Shown here piece after piece: positions 187 to 6,383 of a DNA stretch of 9,180 bases (its first letter is position 1; every line of letters starts with the position of its first letter). This stretch comes from Erythrobacter sp. (lineage in GTDB: Bacteria > Pseudomonadota > Alphaproteobacteria > Sphingomonadales > Sphingomonadaceae), in assembly GCA_002695185.1 (NCBI GenBank), contig NZOF01000102.1, positions 1-9,180 of the forward strand, written 5' to 3'. The position numbers and the translations under genes are program-made. The notes beneath the pieces were generated by a model. It worked only from the letters and a program-made list of their open reading frames with translations, was not told the DNA's origin and made no database searches.

Positions 187-214
187 ATTGAAAAGGGCCG
201 CCGAAGCGGCCCTT
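187..214 (-). terminator. Intrinsic terminator of the gapR homologue
   Basis: On the minus strand a 9-bp perfect stem (AAGGGCCGC pairing with GCGGCCCTT) closes on a TTCG tetraloop and runs into TTTT. It lies 15 bases past the gapR stop codon. This is a textbook rho-independent terminator for leftward transcription. The U tract is short, as TTTT is followed by CAATT. Confidence 0.85.
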
Positions 215-223
215 GTTAGGATG
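213..223 (-). promoter_or_regulatory. CATCCTA motif ahead of the left-edge gene
   Basis: On the minus strand this reads CATCC followed by TAACAA, which can serve as a -10 hexamer. It lies between the gapR stop and the gapR terminator and 47 bases before the ATG at 170. No TTG-type -35 is visible at the usual distance. If it is a promoter, its start point would fall near the loop of the terminator, so new transcripts would lack the left arm and escape termination. It is the weakest of the five copies of the motif. Confidence 0.35.
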
Positions 224-228
224 GAACC

Positions 229-471
229 TCAGCCGATGCCGAGTGCTGCCTTGTAAGTCTCAAGGATCATTTCCATTTCGCGGCGATCGTCGGCATTCAT
301 TTTACGAAGGCGGATTACCTGCTTCATCGTGGAAACCGAGTACCCCACGGCCTTAGCCTCGGCGTAAACGTCACGGATATCGTCGGCGATTCCCTTCTTT
401 TCTTCTTCGAGGCGTTCAACGCGCTCAATGAGAAGGCGCAGGCGGTCATCGGTGGTTTCGGCTTCTGCCAT
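229..471 (-). CDS. gapR: GapR family nucleoid-associated protein (DUF2312)
   Basis: This 80-residue protein matches the whole DUF2312/GapR family: an N-terminal helix with IERVERLEEEKKGIADDI at about residues 15-32, then DVYAEAKAVGYSV and VIRLRKMNADDRREME, ending in the usual short helix with the YKAALG tail. Caulobacter GapR is about 89 residues, so this is a full-length member. In Caulobacter, GapR binds overtwisted AT-rich DNA ahead of moving polymerases and forks and stimulates topoisomerases; it forms coiled-coil dimers and tetramers. Homologues are also common on plasmids and phages of Alphaproteobacteria, where they may act on the element's own DNA. GAGGA lies about 9 bases before the ATG. 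The gene has its own CATCCTA promoter-like site upstream and an intrinsic terminator downstream, so it looks monocistronic. Family assignment is firm; its role on this replicon is inferred. Confidence 0.95.
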   Translation of the reverse strand: MAEAETTDDRLRLLIERVERLEEEKKGIADDIRDVYAEAKAVGYSVSTMKQVIRLRKMNADDRREMEMILETYKAALGIG

Positions 472-524
472 TGGTATTCCTCATGCAGTTGGTGTGGGAG
501 AACAGTGAGTTGCTAGCTCGGATA

Positions 525-552
525 TTTGTAGGATGAAGGATCTGATCGGCAA
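525..552 (-). promoter_or_regulatory. Candidate promoter of gapR with CATCCTA motif
   Basis: On the minus strand TTGCCG (552-547), a 16-bp spacer and TACAAA (530-525) form a sigma-70-like arrangement. CATCC lies directly before the -10 box, as in the four other copies. The predicted start point near 518 gives a leader of about 47 bases. The -35 box lies inside the inverted repeat at 544-566. Confidence 0.5.
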
Positions 553-566
553 AAGTTGGGCCGATC
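544..566 (-). terminator. Weak hairpin at the end of the PBP gene
   Basis: GATCGGC and GCCGATC form a 7-bp perfect stem around a 9-base loop, overlapping the PBP stop codon by two bases. No U tract follows on the minus strand (AGATCC comes next), so efficient intrinsic termination is doubtful. It could instead be an operator, since it contains the -35 box of the gapR promoter. Confidence 0.3.
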
Positions 567-2568
567 AATCAGTGGGCCTGATTGCGCGGCTTCGTCCGGG
601 TGCGCGGTCGACGACAGGCTGGGTTGCTTGCGGGGTAGATATTGCCGCTTCAGGCAATGGGCTGCTTTCTGCAGGACGTTCGGATTTCTGCGTCGTGATC
701 GTCGTTGGAGTGTCACGGCCGTACGCTGGCCGAGATGGCCCGGTTGACGCAGGCAAGGGAGACAGGGTGATGACGTCAGGTCGATCCTTGGTCGCAACCT
801 TCATGTAGTCTGCAAAGCTGCGCGCGGGACCTCGCCCGCCCTGCATTCCAGGGATGGGCCTTGCATCATCGCGGCCCATCCAGACGCCGGTGACAATGCC
901 GCCTGAGAACCCGATGAACCAGCCGTCCTTGCCGGAATTGGTCGTTCCGGTTTTTCCAGCCGCAGAGCGACCGAAGTTGGAGGCCTGGCCGGTGCCATAA
1001 TCAACGGTGCCGGACATAAGGCGGACCATGTCCGCCGCATTATTGGCCGAGACAATCTGCTGAGGCTCGTAATCGAGACGCTCATAGACGGTCTGCCCAT
1101 TCATCTCGATGCGTGAAATTCCGAATGGCACAACGGACCGGCCCAGCGATGCGACCGTCGCATAAGCTCGGGCCATGTCGAGAAGGCGGACATCCGCGGT
1201 ACCGAGCACCATGCTTGGAGATCGTTGCACCGGCGTTGAGATCCCGAGGCGATGGGCGATATTTGCGATCTTCGCGGTCCCCACGTCCTGGCCGAGCCGC
1301 GCTGCAACGGTGTTCAGGGACCACGCGAAGGCGGTTCGAAGAGGGATAACCCCGGAGTATCGGCCGGAGCTGTTATGAGGCGTCCATCCGCGGATATTGA
1401 TCGGACCATCATAAACGGCGCTGGAGGGCCTGTAACCTGCCTCGAGGGCTGCGAGATAGACGAACAGCTTGAAGGATGACCCTGGCTGGCGGCGTGCCTG
1501 CGTGACCCTGTTATAGGTGGAAGTGGCGTAGTCGAGACCGCCTATCATCGCCTTGATAGCGCCGCCTTCCTCGAGCGAGACCAGCGCGGCTTGCTGTCCC
1601 TTCCCAGTATGGGCGGCAATCGCATCGAGAGAGGCCTGCTGAAGCGTAGGCGACAGGGTGGTGTAGACATCGACGTTGCCGCTCAGGCCGGGCGCGAGTT
1701 GGTCGACTTGCGGACTGATCCAGTCAACGAAATGTCGGCTCGAGGTACGAAGCTGAGGATCGTGTGCCTTCGCAAAAGTGAGGCCTTTTGGCTTGGAAGG
1801 AGCCGATGTTTCCTGTCCTGTTGAGCGCATGCGGGCAAGGACGACCCCTGCCCGGCCCAATGCTGCCTCTTTGTCGGCCGTGGGAGCATAGGAGGACGGG
1901 GCCTTGGGCAGCCCAGCGAGAAGAGCCGCTTCGGACAGGGAAAGTTCGGTTGCATCGTGACCGTAGAAACGGCGCGACGCTGCATCGATTCCATAAGCGC
2001 CCCCACCGAAATAGATCCGGTTAAGGTAGAGCTCGAGGATCTGGTTCTTCGTGAATTTCCGCTCCATCGCCAGAGCGACGATCACTTCGTCGATCTTCCG
2101 CCTGATGTTGTAGCTTCTGGAAAGAAATATGGTGCGAGCGACTTGCTGCGTGATGGTCGAGGCGCCCTGCATGCGGCGGTCTGTATCGCGGTTTGCGAAG
2201 GCGAGATGTAGGGCACGTGCAAGCGCTACGGGATCGATCCCGAAATGAGATCGGTACCTGTGATCTTCGACCGCAATAATGGCCTGACGCATTGTGACGG
2301 GGATCGCCTTGTAGGAGAGCCATTCGCCGTAGGCTGGTCCGGTGCGATGAAGCACGGTCCCATCGTTCGCAAGAAAGCGCAGTGTCGTGCCGCGGGGCGA
2401 ACGTTTGATGTCCTCGAAAGAAGGCAATCTCGACGCGGCATTGTAAACGGCGTATCCTGTCCCGATGGCGAGGCCGGCAGCAACGGATGAGGCGGCCAGA
2501 CCAGTCCAAATCAAGCCGTGTACCAGCCTCCGGCGCTTTGAAGGCGGCTGGTCAGTTCGATTGGGCAT
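565..2568 (-). CDS. Bifunctional class A penicillin-binding protein (PBP1A type)
   Basis: This 667-residue protein should polymerise lipid II into glycan strands and cross-link the stem peptides on the periplasmic face of the inner membrane. A basic cytoplasmic tail is followed by a membrane anchor at about residues 17-42. The glycosyltransferase family 51 domain (about 60-230) has the catalytic EDHRYRSHFG motif (E101), GASTITQQ (135-142), RKIDEVIVALAMERKFTKNQ, LELYLNRIYFGGGAYGI and EAALLAGLPKAPSSY. The transpeptidase domain (about 300-595) has SSFK with nucleophile S364, SLN (417-419) and KTGT (539-542). All catalytic motifs are intact. A Pro/Ser/Thr-rich tail of about 70 residues ends the protein. 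There is no Shine-Dalgarno before the ATG; an in-frame TGA just upstream rules out a longer start. Housekeeping PBP1A is chromosomal, so this copy among accessory genes is probably an extra one, perhaps helping envelope remodelling or transfer (inference). It appears to be a single-gene unit with a CATCCTA motif upstream. Confidence 0.95.
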   Translation of the reverse strand: MPNRTDQPPSKRRRLVHGLIWTGLAASSVAAGLAIGTGYAVYNAASRLPSFEDIKRSPRGTTLRFLANDGTVLHRTGPAYGEWLSYKAIPVTMRQAIIAVEDHRYRSHFGIDPVALARALHLAFANRDTDRRMQGASTITQQVARTIFLSRSYNIRRKIDEVIVALAMERKFTKNQILELYLNRIYFGGGAYGIDAASRRFYGHDATELSLSEAALLAGLPKAPSSYAPTADKEAALGRAGVVLARMRSTGQETSAPSKPKGLTFAKAHDPQLRTSSRHFVDWISPQVDQLAPGLSGNVDVYTTLSPTLQQASLDAIAAHTGKGQQAALVSLEEGGAIKAMIGGLDYATSTYNRVTQARRQPGSSFKLFVYLAALEAGYRPSSAVYDGPINIRGWTPHNSSGRYSGVIPLRTAFAWSLNTVAARLGQDVGTAKIANIAHRLGISTPVQRSPSMVLGTADVRLLDMARAYATVASLGRSVVPFGISRIEMNGQTVYERLDYEPQQIVSANNAADMVRLMSGTVDYGTGQASNFGRSAAGKTGTTNSGKDGWFIGFSGGIVTGVWMGRDDARPIPGMQGGRGPARSFADYMKVATKDRPDVITLSPLPASTGPSRPAYGRDTPTTITTQKSERPAESSPLPEAAISTPQATQPVVDRAPGRSRAIRPTD

Positions 2569-2596
2569 GGGGAGGTCTCGATCGGCGTAGGTGCAT
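2552..2596 (-). promoter_or_regulatory. Possible 14-codon leader ORF overlapping the PBP start
   Basis: An ATG at 2596 lies 7 bases after the -10-like TAAAAT, so the predicted mRNA would begin at or next to it. The frame encodes MHLRRSRPPHAQSN and ends with TGA at 2554-2552, overlapping the PBP start codon at 2568 in another frame. With no Shine-Dalgarno before the PBP gene, coupled re-initiation is possible. This is inference from spacing only. Confidence 0.2.
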
Positions 2597-2603
2597 CAGC
2601 CCC

Positions 2604-2633
2604 ATTTTAGGATGATAGGACCGGTCATCCCAA
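2604..2633 (-). promoter_or_regulatory. Candidate promoter of the PBP gene with CATCCTA motif
   Basis: On the minus strand TTGGGA (2633-2628), an 18-bp spacer and TAAAAT (2609-2604) make a sigma-70-like promoter, with CATCC abutting the -10 box. GGATGA (2610-2615) and TCATCC (2625-2630) form an inverted repeat across the spacer, which could be a repressor dyad. The rest of the 186-base gap between this gene and the DUF2726 gene shows only a weak GCCG/CGGC hairpin at 2733-2743 without a U tract. Confidence 0.5.
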
Positions 2634-2754
2634 AGGTGGGCTTCACGCGGCGAGAAGCGTAGCGGCCAGCGATCTGCCGACAGCTTCGCTCAATGCGCTG
2701 AGTTCTGTGTATTCAGGTGATTGGACGTTTGGGCCGGGGCGGCGACCCACGCTG

Positions 2755-3378
2755 CTATGCGAAGTCGGAAAGCGCGAGCCGCTGGGCGATATTGGCGTTG
2801 ATTCCGGGGTATAGGTGATATTTTAGCTGGCTGGAGAGCTCATCCAGGGTGATCTTGTGGGCCTTGCGGAGCCGAAGTGTCGGGAAACCTGCATTGGCGG
2901 TAATGCGGTCACGCCTGGCGTCTTTTGCTCCATCGTGCGAGCGGTCATCGAGTTCGATGATTAGCCTGACATTCGACTTCGAATCACAGATGACGAAATC
3001 GATGATCTTGCGATCGAACTTGTTTCTGAAGCGCAGACGGTCTCCGTAGCTGAGACCGTTGGGCGTCTTGATGATGGCGCCCATTGCAACTTGCGAAAAG
3101 ACGTCGAATTGGCTCCCCGCGAGGACCTCGCGGAGCTTACGATAGAGGACTATCTCGTGCTGCGTCATGAGCGGTTTCCCGGTGAAATCCGAGAAGGCAC
3201 GCATAGTGGGTAAGGTGGAAATGCCCGAACTTGTGGGACGCCTTGCCCTTAGGAGAACCAGCAGCAGGAAATATCCGATGACGAACGGCGCAGCCCACAG
3301 GGCCAGCGATAAAATCATTCTGATAACGCTGTCAGCGATGAACAGCATTGCTTGGCCTGGGGTAGTTGGCGGGTTCAT
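2755..3378 (-). CDS. Membrane-anchored DUF2726 protein (PD-(D/E)XK-like fold)
   Basis: The 207-residue protein has one long hydrophobic segment (about residues 17-44) followed by RARR, which suggests an N-terminal anchor with the rest in the cytoplasm. Residues about 72-190 match DUF2726: MTQHEIVLYRKLREVL, FDVFSQVAMGAII, KIIDFVICD with D127, RLIIELDDRSHD with E142 and D144, then RRDRITANAGFPTLRL. The D...E-x-D pattern and the trailing RxD resemble a PD-(D/E)XK nuclease core, although the second site is E-L-D and not the classic E-x-K, so activity is uncertain. The start codon overlaps the sigma factor stop by ATGA, with GGAAG about 6 bases upstream, so translation is coupled. It is the last gene of the rnhB-sigma operon. 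A role in nucleic-acid processing or element defence is inference from fold and neighbours. Confidence 0.8.
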   Translation of the reverse strand: MNPPTTPGQAMLFIADSVIRMILSLALWAAPFVIGYFLLLVLLRARRPTSSGISTLPTMRAFSDFTGKPLMTQHEIVLYRKLREVLAGSQFDVFSQVAMGAIIKTPNGLSYGDRLRFRNKFDRKIIDFVICDSKSNVRLIIELDDRSHDGAKDARRDRITANAGFPTLRLRKAHKITLDELSSQLKYHLYPGINANIAQRLALSDFA

Positions 3379-4160
3379 GCTGCCTTCCGCGTATATTTCT
3401 TCGGCGGTTCGAGGTCGACGTTCGCGACGCCCATGATCTGGAATTGACGAGACAGCTTCTTCAAAAGACCGACCTCGATTTGCCTGATGCGCTCACGCGA
3501 CACGCCAAACTCGGCGGATAGATCGGCAAGAGTGGCCGGTTCATCATTGGCGGCGACGCGGGCGAAGAGAATCCGCTTTTCCCGGTCATTGAGCGTTGCC
3601 GCGGCCTTGTGGATCAAGGCGACCCCCTTTTGGCGATCGATGTGGGCATCGGGCGGCGGAAGATTATCCGCCAGCTGGAATGCATCCTCGATGGCTGTGT
3701 AGGCCGAATTCGAGGCAGTGAGAGATCGGCGGACCTCATCGTCGATGTCTTCGAGCTTGATGCCTGCCAATTTTGCTACGGCGGCTGGCGTGGGTATCTG
3801 ACCGCGCGCTTCCAGCTTCTGGCGTGCCTTGCAAATCCGGGAGCCCTGGAGCGCGGGATTGGTCCGGCCGGTGATTTTGACGAGCGGCGCGGCGCGCTGG
3901 GCAGTTCTGATGCGCTCTGCGATGCGGTGCCGGGCAAACGTGGCAAACTGGTAGCCAGCGTCTAGGTCAAAAGGCTCAAGGGCCTCAAGAAGGCCGATCG
4001 TTCCGAGCTGACAAGCGTCTTCTCGCTCAAGCTTTGATCCATGTCTCACGGCAAGCTTTACGATGAGCTTCTCGTAATGCTTGATCAGCTCTGCCTTGGA
4101 GCGCTCGCAGCCTGCCTTCGCCTTCGCAATGGTGTCGGCGTGCGTGATCTGCTGTCCCAT
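3375..4160 (-). CDS. RpoH-like sigma-70 family RNA polymerase sigma factor
   Basis: This 261-residue protein should bind core RNA polymerase and direct it to a specific promoter set. Region 2 spans about residues 20-92 and includes EDACQLGTIGLLEALEPFD and YQFATFARHRIAERIR, close to the region 2.2-2.4 pattern of RpoH/RpoD proteins but with H78-R79 where a conserved Trp-Ile-Arg is usual. A region 3-like segment follows (PTPAAVAKLAGIKLEDID, about 123-140). Region 4 spans about 182-237 with the helix-turn-helix TLADLSAEFGVSRERIRQIE, a good sigma-70 signature. There is no region 1.1, and it is slightly shorter than RpoH. The stretch 94-112 is unusual. GGGGGA precedes the ATG. It is third in the rnhB operon and is coupled to the DUF2726 gene by ATGA. 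It may read the CATCCTA promoters, including its own operon's (inference). It is not necessarily a heat-shock factor. Confidence 0.9.
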   Translation of the reverse strand: MGQQITHADTIAKAKAGCERSKAELIKHYEKLIVKLAVRHGSKLEREDACQLGTIGLLEALEPFDLDAGYQFATFARHRIAERIRTAQRAAPLVKITGRTNPALQGSRICKARQKLEARGQIPTPAAVAKLAGIKLEDIDDEVRRSLTASNSAYTAIEDAFQLADNLPPPDAHIDRQKGVALIHKAAATLNDREKRILFARVAANDEPATLADLSAEFGVSRERIRQIEVGLLKKLSRQFQIMGVANVDLEPPKKYTRKAA

Positions 4161-4187
4161 GTTTCCCCCGTTCAGCGATTGTTTGTT

Positions 4188-4382
4188 TCAGAGTTCGAAC
4201 CAGTCGGCCGATGTGAGATCGACTACGACGGTTGCATCGGAATGGTTCGGATTGGCCCATCTGACGGGGACGTGAAAAACCTGCTGATCTTCGGTCTCCA
4301 CGACTTTGCCGATGACCTCGAATGGATCGGCGTGTTCGCGCAGCCATGCGACGGGGTCAGTTCCTGAAATTTTGGTGGTCAA
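4188..4382 (-). CDS. Small unknown protein between rnhB and the sigma factor gene
   Basis: The 64-residue frame begins with TTG at 4382 (T-T-K-I-S-G-T-D follows) and ends with WFEL. It contains VAWLREHADPFEVIGKVVE and a beta-rich C-terminal part (VFHVPVRWANP, ATVVVDLTSADW). Third codon positions are strongly GC-rich, as in its neighbours, which supports real coding. There is no ATG in the frame and only a weak AGAAAG sequence upstream, so the start is uncertain. It is in the same frame as rnhB and is separated from it only by the TAG stop and four codons, so coupled re-initiation is likely. The sigma gene starts 27 bases later. No family is recognised. Its position suggests a partner or regulator of the sigma factor, for example an anti-sigma-like protein, but nothing in the sequence proves this. 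Confidence 0.6.
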   Translation of the reverse strand: MTTKISGTDPVAWLREHADPFEVIGKVVETEDQQVFHVPVRWANPNHSDATVVVDLTSADWFEL

Positions 4383-4394
4383 ATGAATAGCTTT

Positions 4395-5018
4395 CTAAAG
4401 ATCTGGCCGAGCCTTGAGCATGGTCCGAATGGGAGCAAAGCTTCGCCGGTGGTGCAGGCTTGGGCCGTGGGCTTCGATAGCCGCGATGTGGTCGCGGGTT
4501 CCGTATCCCTTGTTTTTCCCCCAATTGTACTGTGGCTCCAGATCGTGAAGCGCCTTTACTGCGTTATCGCGCCAGACCTTTGCGATGATGCTTGCAGCAG
4601 AAATCGTCGGGCAGAGATCATCACCCTTGGGCAATAGCTCCAAGGCTCCGGGTATGGGCGGCGCTTTGTCGCCGTCGACGATGACGAGGCTCTGGCGGCG
4701 CAGCGTTGAAGGAATGCCTTCCCAGGCGCGCCGCATTGCAAGAAGCGTTGCGGCAAGGATCCCAATGCGATCGATTTCCTGAACCGTGGCTTCGCCGATG
4801 GAGACCTCGGCGCACTCGCGAATGGCAAGATCGAATGCGATCCGCTTTTTCTCGCTGAGCTTCTTGGAATCGCGAAGTCCTTCAGGCGCTTCGGTCACAA
4901 AGATGACCGCGGCGGTCGTGACTGAAGTGATGAGCGAACCGCGTCCGACTTCGTCGATACCGATGACGGGGCGCTGACTGCGTCTGCAGCAGGGATGATC
5001 TTCATTGGACATTCCCAT
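4395..5018 (-). CDS. rnhB: Ribonuclease HII
   Basis: The 207-residue protein cleaves RNA in RNA-DNA hybrids and 5' of single ribonucleotides in DNA. The catalytic set is present: D22 and E23 in GIDEVGRG, D115 in VIVDGD, and D151 in SAASIIAKVWRD. The GRG loop (25-27) that reads the RNA-DNA junction is kept, as are DSKKLS (50-55) and the C-terminal NKGYGTRDHIAAIEAHGPS. The stretch after GRG reads SLITSVTTAAV, where family members usually have PLAGPVVAAAV, so this is a divergent copy, probably additional to the chromosomal one. ATG occurs at 5018 and 5012 with no Shine-Dalgarno before either. A -10-like TACAAT abuts the first, so the mRNA may begin at the second ATG and be leaderless. It heads an operon with a 64-aa protein, a sigma factor and a DUF2726 protein. 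A job in primer removal or hybrid clearance for the element is inferred. Confidence 0.93.
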   Translation of the reverse strand: MGMSNEDHPCCRRSQRPVIGIDEVGRGSLITSVTTAAVIFVTEAPEGLRDSKKLSEKKRIAFDLAIRECAEVSIGEATVQEIDRIGILAATLLAMRRAWEGIPSTLRRQSLVIVDGDKAPPIPGALELLPKGDDLCPTISAASIIAKVWRDNAVKALHDLEPQYNWGKNKGYGTRDHIAAIEAHGPSLHHRRSFAPIRTMLKARPDL

Positions 5019-5029
5019 ATTGTAGGATG
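5019..5029 (-). promoter_or_regulatory. CATCCTA motif and -10-like box ahead of rnhB
   Basis: On the minus strand CATCC (5029-5025) is followed by TACAAT (5024-5019), the best -10 hexamer of the five copies. It touches the first rnhB ATG. No TTG-type -35 is seen at 16-18 bp, so an activator, or a sigma factor that reads mainly the -10 side, would be needed. An inverted CATCC half-site lies at 5049-5053 on the plus strand. Confidence 0.45.
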
Positions 5030-5046
5030 AAAATGTCTATTCGCGG

Positions 5047-5063
5047 AGCATCCTCTCGATGCT
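5047..5063 (-). other. Short hairpin between the 70-aa gene and rnhB
   Basis: AGCATC and GATGCT form a 6-bp stem around a 5-base loop, 28 bases past the stop of the 70-aa gene. No U tract follows on the minus strand. It may be a weak terminator or part of the rnhB control region, since its left arm includes most of the inverted CATCC half-site. Confidence 0.25.
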
Positions 5064-5090
5064 GCTCATGTAAGGATCCAGAGGGAAGGA

Positions 5091-5303
5091 TCACTCAGCC
5101 GATCTGAAAACATAGATAGGCTGCCGGGCGGTTACGCATGAGCGCGTATCGTCAGGATCGTCGCCGGCAAAGACGGCGACGGCACACAGCGCCGTATCGG
5201 CGCCGCTGTAGAAGCCCTGCCAGTATGCGCCATATCCGGCGAGGGCAGCGGAAAACAGTGCGGTGAAGGCGTATGTGCCCAGCCGCTTGAGCTTGATTGT
5301 CAT
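5091..5303 (-). CDS. Small exported or membrane-anchored unknown protein
   Basis: The 70-residue protein has a basic N-terminus (TIKLKRLG) and one hydrophobic segment at about residues 9-27, rich in Ala and Gly, which suggests an uncleaved signal or a single membrane anchor. The remaining part has an acidic GDDPDD patch and two cysteines (C40, C56) that could pair in the periplasm. AAGGA lies about 10 bases before the ATG, a good ribosome site. It follows the 277-aa gene after 27 bases in the same direction and has no CATCCTA motif of its own, so it is probably the second gene of that unit. I do not recognise a family. Confidence 0.65.
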   Translation of the reverse strand: MTIKLKRLGTYAFTALFSAALAGYGAYWQGFYSGADTALCAVAVFAGDDPDDTRSCVTARQPIYVFRSAE

Positions 5304-5330
5304 TCTAGATTGGTCCTTACACCAGCGGAT

Positions 5331-6164
5331 TTAGATGCGACCGATCCCTTGGACTGCGAGCATCTGCATCGTCATCTGGTCGACGGGCTTGATATTCTGG
5401 TCGATGCGAAGGGATGGAGCCGGGGGGTCGCGCGGCGTGTCGTGGACGAGGATGAAGCGGTCCACGGCATTGCTGGCAAGGCCGGCTTCAAGATCGGAGG
5501 CTGCGATCTGGAAGTCATTCCCGATGATCATGACAGGTCCGTATTTGGTCGGTGCCATGGGTCGGAACTGCCAATTGCCGGCGATGCCGCGGCGAAGATG
5601 TCTGTCATCGCCAACGAGGGCTTCGGCCAGGGTATTGGCTTCGCCGCTCAGCCCTGCCCCCAGTCCTGCAATTGGACGCGCAGCCGACATTTCGCCTTCA
5701 TGAGGGTTCGTAATGGGCACGAGGAAGTGCTTGTCACCGCGTCTCAGTACGATGCCGTAATTCTGACTGTCGTAGCTTTGCGTCCGGACGGAAACGGGCG
5801 GCGGCAGATGCTCGATTATCATGTCCAGTGCTCCGCCCTTTTGTCCGGCGTGGCTGAGCCATTCGCTGGTAAGTCGCGATAGCTGCGGAGAGTGCCACTC
5901 CGTTTCCTTGATGGCCGCCTGGTGCGAGGCATGGATCCATTCGCGGCGGTCGACTGCATTGAGAGCGGCAAGGCTTTTTTGAGCGTCGGTGCGAGCGGAA
6001 TCCTCGAAACCGTATCCCTGTAGGCCTGCGTCGAGGAGCGGAAGCTGGATATGAACGTAGGCAGCAGCGGCCGACCTCGCGCCGCCCGGGATGACCAGAT
6101 CGCTTTCAGGAATGAGCGGGGAGAGCTCATCTCGGACGGCGATGACTGCGTCGGAAAGGTTCAT
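5331..6164 (-). CDS. Unknown 277-residue protein
   Basis: No family is recognised. The protein is soluble-looking, with no membrane segment or signal. The N-terminal part (1-110) is helical and Ala-rich, with MNLSDAVIAVRDELSPLIP, GARSAAAAYVHIQLPLL and RREWIHASHQAAIKETEWH. The middle has a likely beta region (NYGIVLRRGDKHFLVPIT, about 135-153) followed by a Gly/Ala-rich stretch and GNWQFRPMAPTKYGPVMIIGND. AAAGGAG lies at a good distance before the ATG. A CATCCTA promoter-like motif ends 27 bases upstream, giving a short leader of about 16 bases that just contains the ribosome site. This fit of predicted start point, ribosome site and start codon supports both the promoter and the gene start. 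It heads a two-gene unit with the 70-aa protein. A + strand open frame of 190 codons lies opposite, but it has no ribosome site and is a shadow. Confidence 0.8.
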   Translation of the reverse strand: MNLSDAVIAVRDELSPLIPESDLVIPGGARSAAAAYVHIQLPLLDAGLQGYGFEDSARTDAQKSLAALNAVDRREWIHASHQAAIKETEWHSPQLSRLTSEWLSHAGQKGGALDMIIEHLPPPVSVRTQSYDSQNYGIVLRRGDKHFLVPITNPHEGEMSAARPIAGLGAGLSGEANTLAEALVGDDRHLRRGIAGNWQFRPMAPTKYGPVMIIGNDFQIAASDLEAGLASNAVDRFILVHDTPRDPPAPSLRIDQNIKPVDQMTMQMLAVQGIGRI

Positions 6165-6186
6165 TCTGTGCTCCTTTGAGACGCTA

Positions 6187-6216
6187 AGTGTAGGATGGAT
6201 ATTTGTTAGCGATCAA
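6187..6216 (-). promoter_or_regulatory. Candidate promoter of the 277-aa gene with CATCCTA motif
   Basis: On the minus strand TTGATC (6216-6211), an 18-bp spacer and TACACT (6192-6187) form a sigma-70-like promoter with CATCC abutting the -10 box. GGATGG (6193-6198) and CCATCC (6217-6222) form an inverted repeat that spans the promoter from the -35 side to the -10 side, a plausible operator. Confidence 0.55.
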
Positions 6217-6293
6217 CCATCCACAAAATTAATGCTGTTCGGGAACGCGTTTGAAGCTTCAGGCTTGTATAATTTGTGGGACCCGAAAGGGCG

Positions 6294-6326
6294 CGATGGT
6301 CCGGCTTTCCTGGTGCCGGACCATCG
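6294..6326 (-). terminator. Perfect 12-bp inverted repeat after the DUF7007-type gene
   Basis: CGATGGTCCGGC (6294-6305) pairs perfectly with GCCGGACCATCG (6315-6326) around a 9-base loop. On the minus strand it lies 53 bases past the stop of the DUF7007-type gene. It is followed by a GC-rich stretch with no T run, so it is a strong hairpin but not a standard intrinsic terminator; it may protect the mRNA 3' end or act as a bidirectional block. A second copy of its right arm exists at 6349-6360 because of the tandem duplication. Confidence 0.55.
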
Positions 6327-6383
6327 TTCCGATCGTTGAGCGCTATTAGCCGGACCATCGTTCCGATCGTTGAGCGCTATTAG
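6315..6383. repeat. 34-bp exact tandem duplication spanning the stop codon
   Basis: Two head-to-tail copies of a 34-bp unit occupy 6315-6348 and 6349-6382, with one further matching base at 6383. The copies are identical. The right copy carries the TAA stop of the DUF7007-type gene, read as TAATAG on the minus strand, and the left copy repeats this in the 3' untranslated region. Perfect identity suggests a recent duplication. Confidence 0.95.

What the first reader, a model, noticed from the sequence alone, without database searches (positions are those of the whole stretch)
213..6222. One CATCCTA motif marks the head of every transcription unit in view
The minus-strand heptamer CATCCTA occurs at 217-223, 529-535, 2608-2614, 5023-5029 and 6191-6197. 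I found no copy in the opposite orientation and none inside a gene. Each copy precedes a gene that heads an inferred unit: the left-edge gene, gapR, the PBP gene, rnhB-sigma-DUF2726, and the 277-aa/70-aa pair. The motif leads into TACAAT, TAAAAT, TACAAA, TACACT or TAACAA, and three copies have TTGCCG, TTGGGA or TTGATC 16-18 bp upstream. A random 7-mer is expected about once in this length over both strands. This looks like an element-wide promoter class or a regulon, binding either a dedicated sigma factor or a common repressor.
Basis: partly seen in the sequence, partly recalled or inferred. Interest (0 to 1): 0.75.

Follow-up and report, generated by a model that had tools for sequence, protein, structure and literature searches.

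The report
Plasmid-wide alternative-sigma-type promoter class
Four of the five repeated motifs look like the core of a real promoter type that recurs on large plasmids of marine bacteria and in flagellar gene clusters of related species, so a set of plasmid genes may be switched on together by one alternative sigma factor that is not yet identified.

Summary
The five CATCCTA copies exist (5 found, 0.61 expected, 0 of 200 shuffles reach 5). Four head transcription units and recur at the matching places of a homologous Croceicoccus contig, L001, two of them in otherwise unalignable DNA. The fifth (217-223) sits beside a terminator, breaks the consensus and is not conserved. The motif is the -10 half of a two-part promoter: TTTGG, 14-15 nt, CATCCTANAAT. 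Among 397 family genomes only G001 and G003 have 20 or more sites; the rest at most 8. All 20 in G003 lie on six contigs (250 kb) of plasmid type, where it marks 24 of 177 unit heads, against 1 of 257 on chromosome stretches: not every unit. The same -10 heads flagellar operons in other family members that encode an atypical sigma-like protein. G001 carries a relative on a motif-bearing contig, with weak sigma regions and a possible SPOR-like end.

The parts
6187..6197 (-). -10 region CATCCTACACT ahead of the 277-aa gene
   Evidence: conserved in L001 at 236
6211..6216 (-). -35-like TTGATC, 13 nt before CATCC
   Evidence: sequence; same hexamer in L001
5331..6164 (-). 277-aa protein, no Pfam family; marker gene of this plasmid group
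   Evidence: 92% identical in L001
5091..5303 (-). 70-aa ORF behind the 277-aa gene
   Evidence: 80% identical ORF in L001
5019..5029 (-). -10 region CATCCTACAAT ahead of the rnhB operon; the start codon supported by L001 (5012) lies 6 nt behind it, so the mRNA may be leaderless
4395..5012 (-). RNase HII gene (ORF open to 5018; the start at 5012 matches the L001 start)
   Evidence: Pfam PF01351
4188..4382 (-). 64-aa ORF between rnhB and the sigma gene
   Evidence: 70% identical ORF in L001
3375..4160 (-). sigma-70 family protein, 261 aa, RpoH-type sigmas among its nearest named relatives; inside a unit headed by the motif
   Evidence: Pfam Sigma70_r2 and r4; relatives
2755..3378 (-). DUF2726 protein; in L001 this place holds a C5-cytosine methylase gene instead
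2628..2634 (-). -35-like TTTGGGA for the PBP promoter
   Evidence: sequence; TTTGGG kept in L001
2604..2614 (-). -10 region CATCCTAAAAT ahead of the PBP gene
   Evidence: same 11-mer at the matching place in L001 and in G003, each 35 bp before the start codon
565..2568 (-). class A penicillin-binding protein gene
   Evidence: Pfam Transgly and Transpeptidase
548..554 (-). -35-like TTTTGCC for the gapR promoter
   Evidence: sequence
525..535 (-). -10 region CATCCTACAAA ahead of gapR
   Evidence: CATCCTACAAT at L001 6399
229..471 (-). GapR-like DNA-binding protein gene
   Evidence: Pfam PF10073
217..223 (-). fifth CATCCTA copy, probably chance: followed by ACAA, beside a hairpin, not conserved in L001
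191..214 (-). terminator-like hairpin behind gapR (GGGCCGC-TTC-GGCGGCC then TTTT)
   Evidence: sequence

Best explanation
CATCCTA is the upstream part of a composite -10 element (CATCCTANAAT) of a bipartite promoter, TTTGG, 14-15 nt, CATCCTANAAT, read by RNA polymerase carrying an alternative sigma factor. The promoter drives a plasmid-borne regulon: in the window, PBP, gapR, the rnhB-64aa-sigma-DUF2726 operon and the 277-aa/70-aa pair. Transcription would start about 6-8 nt behind the hexamer, at a few genes right at the start codon. Shown by sequence: the class, its position at unit heads, its conservation, and its concentration on plasmid-type contigs. Inferred: that a sigma factor reads it.
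For: Conservation against diverged flanks: 4 of 5 window copies recur at the matching unit heads of L001; the PBP and gapR copies lie outside every BLASTN segment. Position: 37 of 45 CATCCTANAAT sites in 593 kb lie outside called genes where 13% of bases do; 32 of 45 have a same-strand start within 150 bp, 27 both (gene calls are crude, and the G001 contigs were chosen for having a site). Element bias: G001 23 and G003 20 sites among 397 genomes, next highest 8; all 20 in G003 on six contigs totalling 250 kb; 20 of 24 TCCTANAAT there have CA in front, 0 of 8 elsewhere in that genome. Heads: 24 of 177 on the G003 contigs, 1 of 257 on chromosome stretches; on the opposite strand 8 of 177 and 1 of 257. 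Sigma-type geometry: logo; TTG-to-TA gap peaks at 19-21 nt. Reader family: sites gather in flagellar regions of G084, G296, G180, G135, G035, G226; 8 of 9 downstream proteins tested are flagellar; an A3 protein is present in these six and in G003 and G001. Genomes with flagellar-type A3 (E < 1e-80) have at least one site in 19 of 24 cases against 155 of 340 without A3, Fisher p 0.0024; without the six genomes that suggested the idea, 13 of 18, p 0.031 (tallied by hand). The G001 form has CATCCTAAAAC about 70 bp before its own gene; a 43% relative (P0131) and a 277-aa-marker relative (P0003) are both listed on a contig of 155,519 bases.
Against: G003 has no A3-type match on its plasmid-type contigs, only one on a 390-kb contig outside any flagellar cluster, and its sampled chromosome shows no motif enrichment. 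G005, G006, G011 and G013 have no significant match to the G001 protein yet hold 2-5 sites each; in G006 and G011 a site lies 6-7 bp before a relaxase gene. 24 of the 34 genomes with 3 or more sites have no A3 match, among them G386 with 7 (hand tally); I looked at site positions of only part of them. G037, without an A3 match, has three CATCCTATAAT within 77 kb on one contig, in DNA without flagellar matches where I fetched it. Sphingosinicella plasmid p1 has an A3-type gene but only 2 CATCCTANA. Most heads on the G003 contigs lack the motif. No transcript 5' ends were seen.
Confidence: 0.47

Rival explanations
1. Host RpoD reads the promoters. CATCC and TTTGG are a plasmid-lineage style of sigma-70 promoter, perhaps helped or held down by a plasmid DNA-binding protein that contacts CATCC.
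For: TTG-to-TA spacing of 19-21 nt equals the canonical 17 +/- 1 spacer. Genomes without a detected A3-type protein keep the motif before relaxase genes.
Against: The sampled chromosome of the same genome does not use it: 1 of 426 upstream regions has CATCCTA, and 6 TANAAT occur there against 46 in 483 plasmid-set upstream regions. Over 80% of sigma-70 promoters in the related Novosphingobium lack T at -7 (PMC8407463, passages), whereas 27 of 49 CATCCTANAA sites in upstream regions have T there. ATCCT tolerates no substitution in that sample.
Confidence: 0.29
2. The window's own RpoH-like sigma (3375-4160) reads the class and activates its own operon.
For: The gene lies inside a unit headed by the motif, in the window and in L001. 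CC directly before the -10 core resembles the composite -10 of RpoH and FliA promoters (recalled, no call).
Against: Only G001 of 397 family genomes has it at E <= 1e-25; with its relative P0010 as query, only G001 of 396 order genomes. G003, with 20 sites, shows no ortholog. The fetched flagellar regions with the same -10 show no match better than E 0.5 (tblastn).
Confidence: 0.13
3. A repressor or activator, not a sigma, recognises CATCCTA as an operator of a plasmid regulon.
For: Near-absolute conservation of ATCCT. A 389-aa helix-turn-helix protein gene in G003 C4, and its relatives in G001 C304 and C625, lie next to a site.
Against: The motif is asymmetric, in register with TANAA, and coupled to TTTGG at a distance that varies by about 1 nt, which is usual for sigma recognition.
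Confidence: 0.07
4. Chance or composition: a 7-mer picked after the fact.
For: One of five copies (217-223) does look like chance.
Against: Cross-genome results.
Confidence: 0.03

Closest known systems
SigN regulon of plasmid pBS32, Bacillus subtilis (PMC6751061, passages read)
   Same: A plasmid-encoded sigma whose promoters sit predominantly on that plasmid, with self-activation.
   Different: Another phylum (recalled). SigN activity was shown in vitro and by transcript end mapping; nothing is shown experimentally here. The passages seen mention no link to flagella.
FliA (sigma-28) flagellar promoters
   Same: Flagellar operons; a CC extension before the -10 core (GCCGATAA against CCTATAA; recalled).
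   Different: A plasmid with the same FliA-type flagellar cluster (Qipengyuania citrea E4 plas1) has 2 ATCCTANAA sites in the 250 kb fetched, none at flagellar operons.
RpoH (sigma-32) promoters
   Same: Composite -10 with a C-rich extension (recalled); the window sigma is RpoH-like.
   Different: -35 is TTTGG, not CTTGAA (recalled); the motif is nearly absent from the sampled chromosome of G003, which has RpoH-size sigma genes.
Alphaproteobacterial sigma-70 promoters (PMC8407463, passages read)
   Same: TTG at -35 and canonical spacing.
   Different: Invariant ATCC before the -10, T at -7 in 27 of 49 sites, plasmid-restricted in G003.
Sigma-like protein WP_115418442.1, Erythrobacter aureus plasmid
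   Same: Relative of the A3 family, in a plasmid flagellar cluster; that plasmid has 3 CATCCTATAAT.
   Different: No plasmid-wide use of the motif.

Membership tests
Sigma-70-family bipartite promoter (any sigma) | -35 and -10 parts with near-fixed spacing, upstream of unit heads, on the coding strand | tested here: met
   (same strand 24 of 177 heads, opposite strand 8 of 177)
Sigma-70-family bipartite promoter (any sigma) | Transcription starts 6-8 nt behind the -10 | not testable with these tools
   no transcript data
Housekeeping RpoD promoter | Used throughout the chromosome of the host | tested here: not met
   CATCCTA in 1 of 426 chromosomal upstream regions sampled; 0 CATCCTANAAT outside the six contigs of G003
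Plasmid-restricted sigma regulon (SigN type) | Promoter sequence confined to the plasmid | tested here: met
   G003: 20 of 20 sites on six plasmid-type contigs; not strictly true across the family, where flagellar operons carry the -10
Plasmid-restricted sigma regulon (SigN type) | Cognate sigma encoded on the same plasmid | tested here: inconclusive
   window and G001 carry sigma genes; on fetched G003 plasmid-type contigs only a FliA
Plasmid-restricted sigma regulon (SigN type) | Purified sigma directs RNA polymerase to these promoters | not testable with these tools
   -
FliA regulon | Motif accompanies FliA and its flagellar operons | tested here: not met
   Q. citrea plasmid
Regulon of the A3-type sigma family | Motif clusters only where an A3-type gene exists | tested here: inconclusive
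   8 genomes with clusters have one; against: G037 has three sites in 77 kb without a match, and G005, G006, G011, G013 have sites without one
Sigma-70 family (485-aa G001 protein) | Regions 2 and 4 | tested here: met
SPOR domain (C-terminal part of the 485-aa protein) | SPOR fold by profile and structure | tested here: inconclusive

The most novel reading that the evidence does not exclude
A large plasmid family has taken over the promoter code of a flagellar sigma family: a plasmid-encoded sigma tethered to the membrane by its own hydrophobic stretch, with a peptidoglycan-binding SPOR-like end outside, reads TTTGG-N14-15-CATCCTANAAT and couples a plasmid regulon (cell-wall enzymes, relaxase, DNA repair genes, the sigma itself) to the state of the cell envelope.
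Probability: 0.21. Interest if true: 0.88.

Novelty: new variant of a known kind. Interest (0 to 1): 0.68.

Why it matters
Plasmid genes are usually assumed to use the host's housekeeping promoters. A plasmid family with its own recognisable promoter class, shared with flagellar operons of related bacteria, would let one factor switch a plasmid regulon as a block, would give a sequence tag for finding these plasmids in fragmented assemblies, and points to an uncharacterised sigma family with a directly testable promoter.

Tried and rejected
Phage origin: no similar DNA in the phage collection for window 2755-5018, no 277-aa relative there, no relative in viral contigs for three queries; the related contigs carry RPA, ParA and MobA/MobL genes, so a plasmid.

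FliA as reader: proposed because G003 and G001 contigs carry fliA-like genes; rejected because the Q. citrea plasmid with the same FliA-type cluster lacks the motif (250,000 of 270,508 bases fetched).

Window RpoH-like sigma as reader: weakened because none was found in G003.

Six other Sphingomonadales plasmids: 0, 0, 1, 1, 1 and 3 sites, so the class is not general. Two of them (407,975 and 347,485 bases, read whole) show no dominant upstream word.

The A3-type gene of G003 on contig C33: no ATCCTANA in the 35 kb fetched around it, so no sign of local targets.

Circularity: the G001 contigs (other than L001) and the six G003 contigs were fetched because they hold sites, so the top rank of CATCCTA is partly built in; the L001 comparison does not depend on this, and the contrast of 24 of 177 against 1 of 257 depends on it less. 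Of 34 genomes with 3 or more sites I asked for all site positions of only some (G001, G003, ten and those listed).

Correction: I tested 20 of 24 against 155 of 340 (p 4.5e-4); on recount it is 19 of 24 (p 0.0024).

The fold model of the 485-aa protein is poor overall (mean pLDDT 51.7); only the two ends were used. Foldseek gave no match at E <= 0.001.

Literature: searches showed no description of this motif as a promoter (titles and abstract starts of the listed papers only,419 papers hold the letters somewhere, 20 were listed and none looks related by title). For PMC6751061 and PMC8407463 I saw passages only.
Full report
What the window is. No whole genome is held for it and no plasmid record is similar at high identity. 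The nearest DNA found is L001, a 10,316-base contig of a Croceicoccus metagenome-assembled genome (handle G001), whose 277-aa protein is 92% identical. Window genes, all on the minus strand: GapR-like, class A PBP, DUF2726, an RpoH-like sigma, RNase HII, a 277-aa and a 70-aa protein, DUF7007 and others. Related contigs of G003 (same genus as G001 by the tool's grouping) carry an RPA replication initiator, ParA, a MobA/MobL relaxase, NAD-dependent DNA ligase, DNA methylases, a Tad-type gene and a flagellar cluster, so this is a family of large plasmids, not a phage.

The observation. The five copies are real. L001 also has five: four at the heads of the same units and one inside the PBP gene. 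The copies before PBP and gapR lie in stretches that BLASTN does not align between window and L001, yet CATCCTAAAAT and CATCCTACAA are kept, with TTTGG (TTTTGCC at gapR in the window) starting 19-20 nt before the CATCC. G003 has CATCCTAAAAT 35 bp before the start codon of its 64.5%-identical PBP, the same distance as in the window and L001. The copy at 217-223 fails: it is followed by ACAA, it sits beside a hairpin, and the matching stretch of L001 lacks it.

Consensus. 81 sites aligned on CATCCTA show T at -19 (0.63) and -18 (0.78), G at -15 (0.52), then CATCCTA, then A, C or T, then AA, then T in 0.62 (selection required CATCCTA and two of the three last bases). Among upstream regions, substitutions within ATCCT of CATCCTANAAT gave 0 sites, while the first C and last T vary: C 27, T 4, A 1, G 1; T 27, C 13, A 7, G 2. 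The gap from TTG to TA peaks at 19-21 nt, the usual sigma spacing. At a few genes the start codon is 6-7 nt behind the hexamer, for example rnhB in L001 and by homology in the window, which suggests leaderless mRNAs.

Element specificity. Whole-genome counts of CATCCTANAAT: G001 23, G003 20; reversed-pattern control 1 and 0. Over 397 genomes of the family, 192 have at least one, and none but these two exceeds 8. In G003 all 20 are on contigs C1, C2, C4, C6, C8 and C14 (250,158 bases of about 3.8 Mb). TCCTANAAT: 24 on those contigs, 20 with CA in front; 8 elsewhere, none with CA. 45 sites lie in 593 kb of fetched DNA, 37 of them outside called genes. Among 7-mers in upstream regions CATCCTA is the one most enriched in the plasmid set: 54 of 483 against 1 of 426 chromosomal (partly circular, see Tried and rejected). 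At unit heads the motif (ATCCTANA) is present in 4 of 4 in the window, 3 of 5 in L001, 24 of 177 on the six G003 contigs, 13 of 87 on the other G001 contigs and 1 of 257 on G003 chromosome stretches; on the opposite strand 0, 0, 8, 9 and 1; at non-heads 0 of 8, 0 of 3, 6 of 102, 3 of 44 and 0 of 166. So the window is unusually dense; on the G003 plasmid contigs it marks roughly one unit in seven.

The flagellar link. Ten other genomes with 3-8 sites were examined for clustering. In six (G084, G296, G180, G135, G035, G226) sites gather within 15-48 kb in regions with flagellar matches; in G386, G263, G398 and G053 they are scattered. Of nine proteins right behind sites that I submitted to Pfam, from G084, G296, G180, G135 and G035, eight are flagellar (FliF, FliK, FliL, MotA, FlbT twice, FlaF twice) and one, from G135, is an HAD hydrolase. 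Several of these promoters have a GGCAA-TTGCC palindrome in the -35 region, others TTTGG, others neither. Four of the clusters (G084, G035, G180, G226) encode an atypical sigma-70-like protein of about 308-350 aa. A search with it (alignment A3) hit 57 of 397 genomes, including G135 and G296 within 20 kb of their sites, G003 (on a 390-kb contig, not flagellar) and G001. Genomes with the close, flagellar-type form (E < 1e-80) have at least one CATCCTANAAT in 19 of 24 cases; genomes without any match in 155 of 340 (Fisher p 0.0024; 13 of 18 and p 0.031 without the six genomes that suggested the idea, tallied by hand).

G003, with 20 sites, has no A3-type match on its plasmid-type contigs. G005, G006, G011 and G013 have no significant match but 2-5 sites each; in G006 and G011 a site lies 6-7 bp before a gene whose product is 50% and 85% identical to a G001 relaxase. 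G386 has 7 scattered sites and no match; G037 has three sites in 77 kb and no match. Sphingosinicella p1 has an A3-type gene and 2 CATCCTANA. Host RpoD therefore remains a serious rival. Against RpoD stands the near absence of the motif from the sampled chromosome and the report that over 80% of sigma-70 promoters of Novosphingobium lack T at -7 (PMC8407463, passages). FliA is rejected by the Q. citrea plasmid. The window's RpoH-like sigma is weakened by its absence from G003.

Verdict. 'Every unit' is too strong beyond the window and one copy is probably chance. The closest known parallel is the SigN regulon of pBS32 (PMC6751061, passages). New here, as far as the listed searches show, are the promoter sequence, its sharing with flagellar operons, and a candidate sigma family.

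Noticed in passing
L001:6612-6793: The gapR gene of the Croceicoccus contig is interrupted by an insertion of about 180 bp with hairpin-like stretches; the window copy is intact.
   Followed up: partly
window 6316-6383: A 34-bp sequence is repeated head to tail twice between the 277-aa promoter and the DUF7007 gene.
   Followed up: no
L001:3118-4287 against window 2755-3378: Between the sigma gene and the PBP gene L001 has a C5-cytosine methylase where the window has DUF2726; the PBP promoter motif is kept all the same.
   Followed up: partly
G003 C4 28699-33763; L304, L311: A MobA/MobL relaxase gene and a 389-aa helix-turn-helix gene lie side by side in G003; relaxase genes in G006 and G011 have the motif 6-7 bp before their start.
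   Followed up: partly
L198-L213 (flagellar regions): GGCAA-TTGCC palindromes lie where a -35 would be before FliF and FliL genes, possibly a flagellar activator site.
   Followed up: no
NZ_CP031358.1 and NZ_CP098495.1: Flagellar gene clusters sit on plasmids of Erythrobacter aureus and Qipengyuania citrea, the first with an A3-type sigma, the second with a FliA-type sigma.
   Followed up: partly
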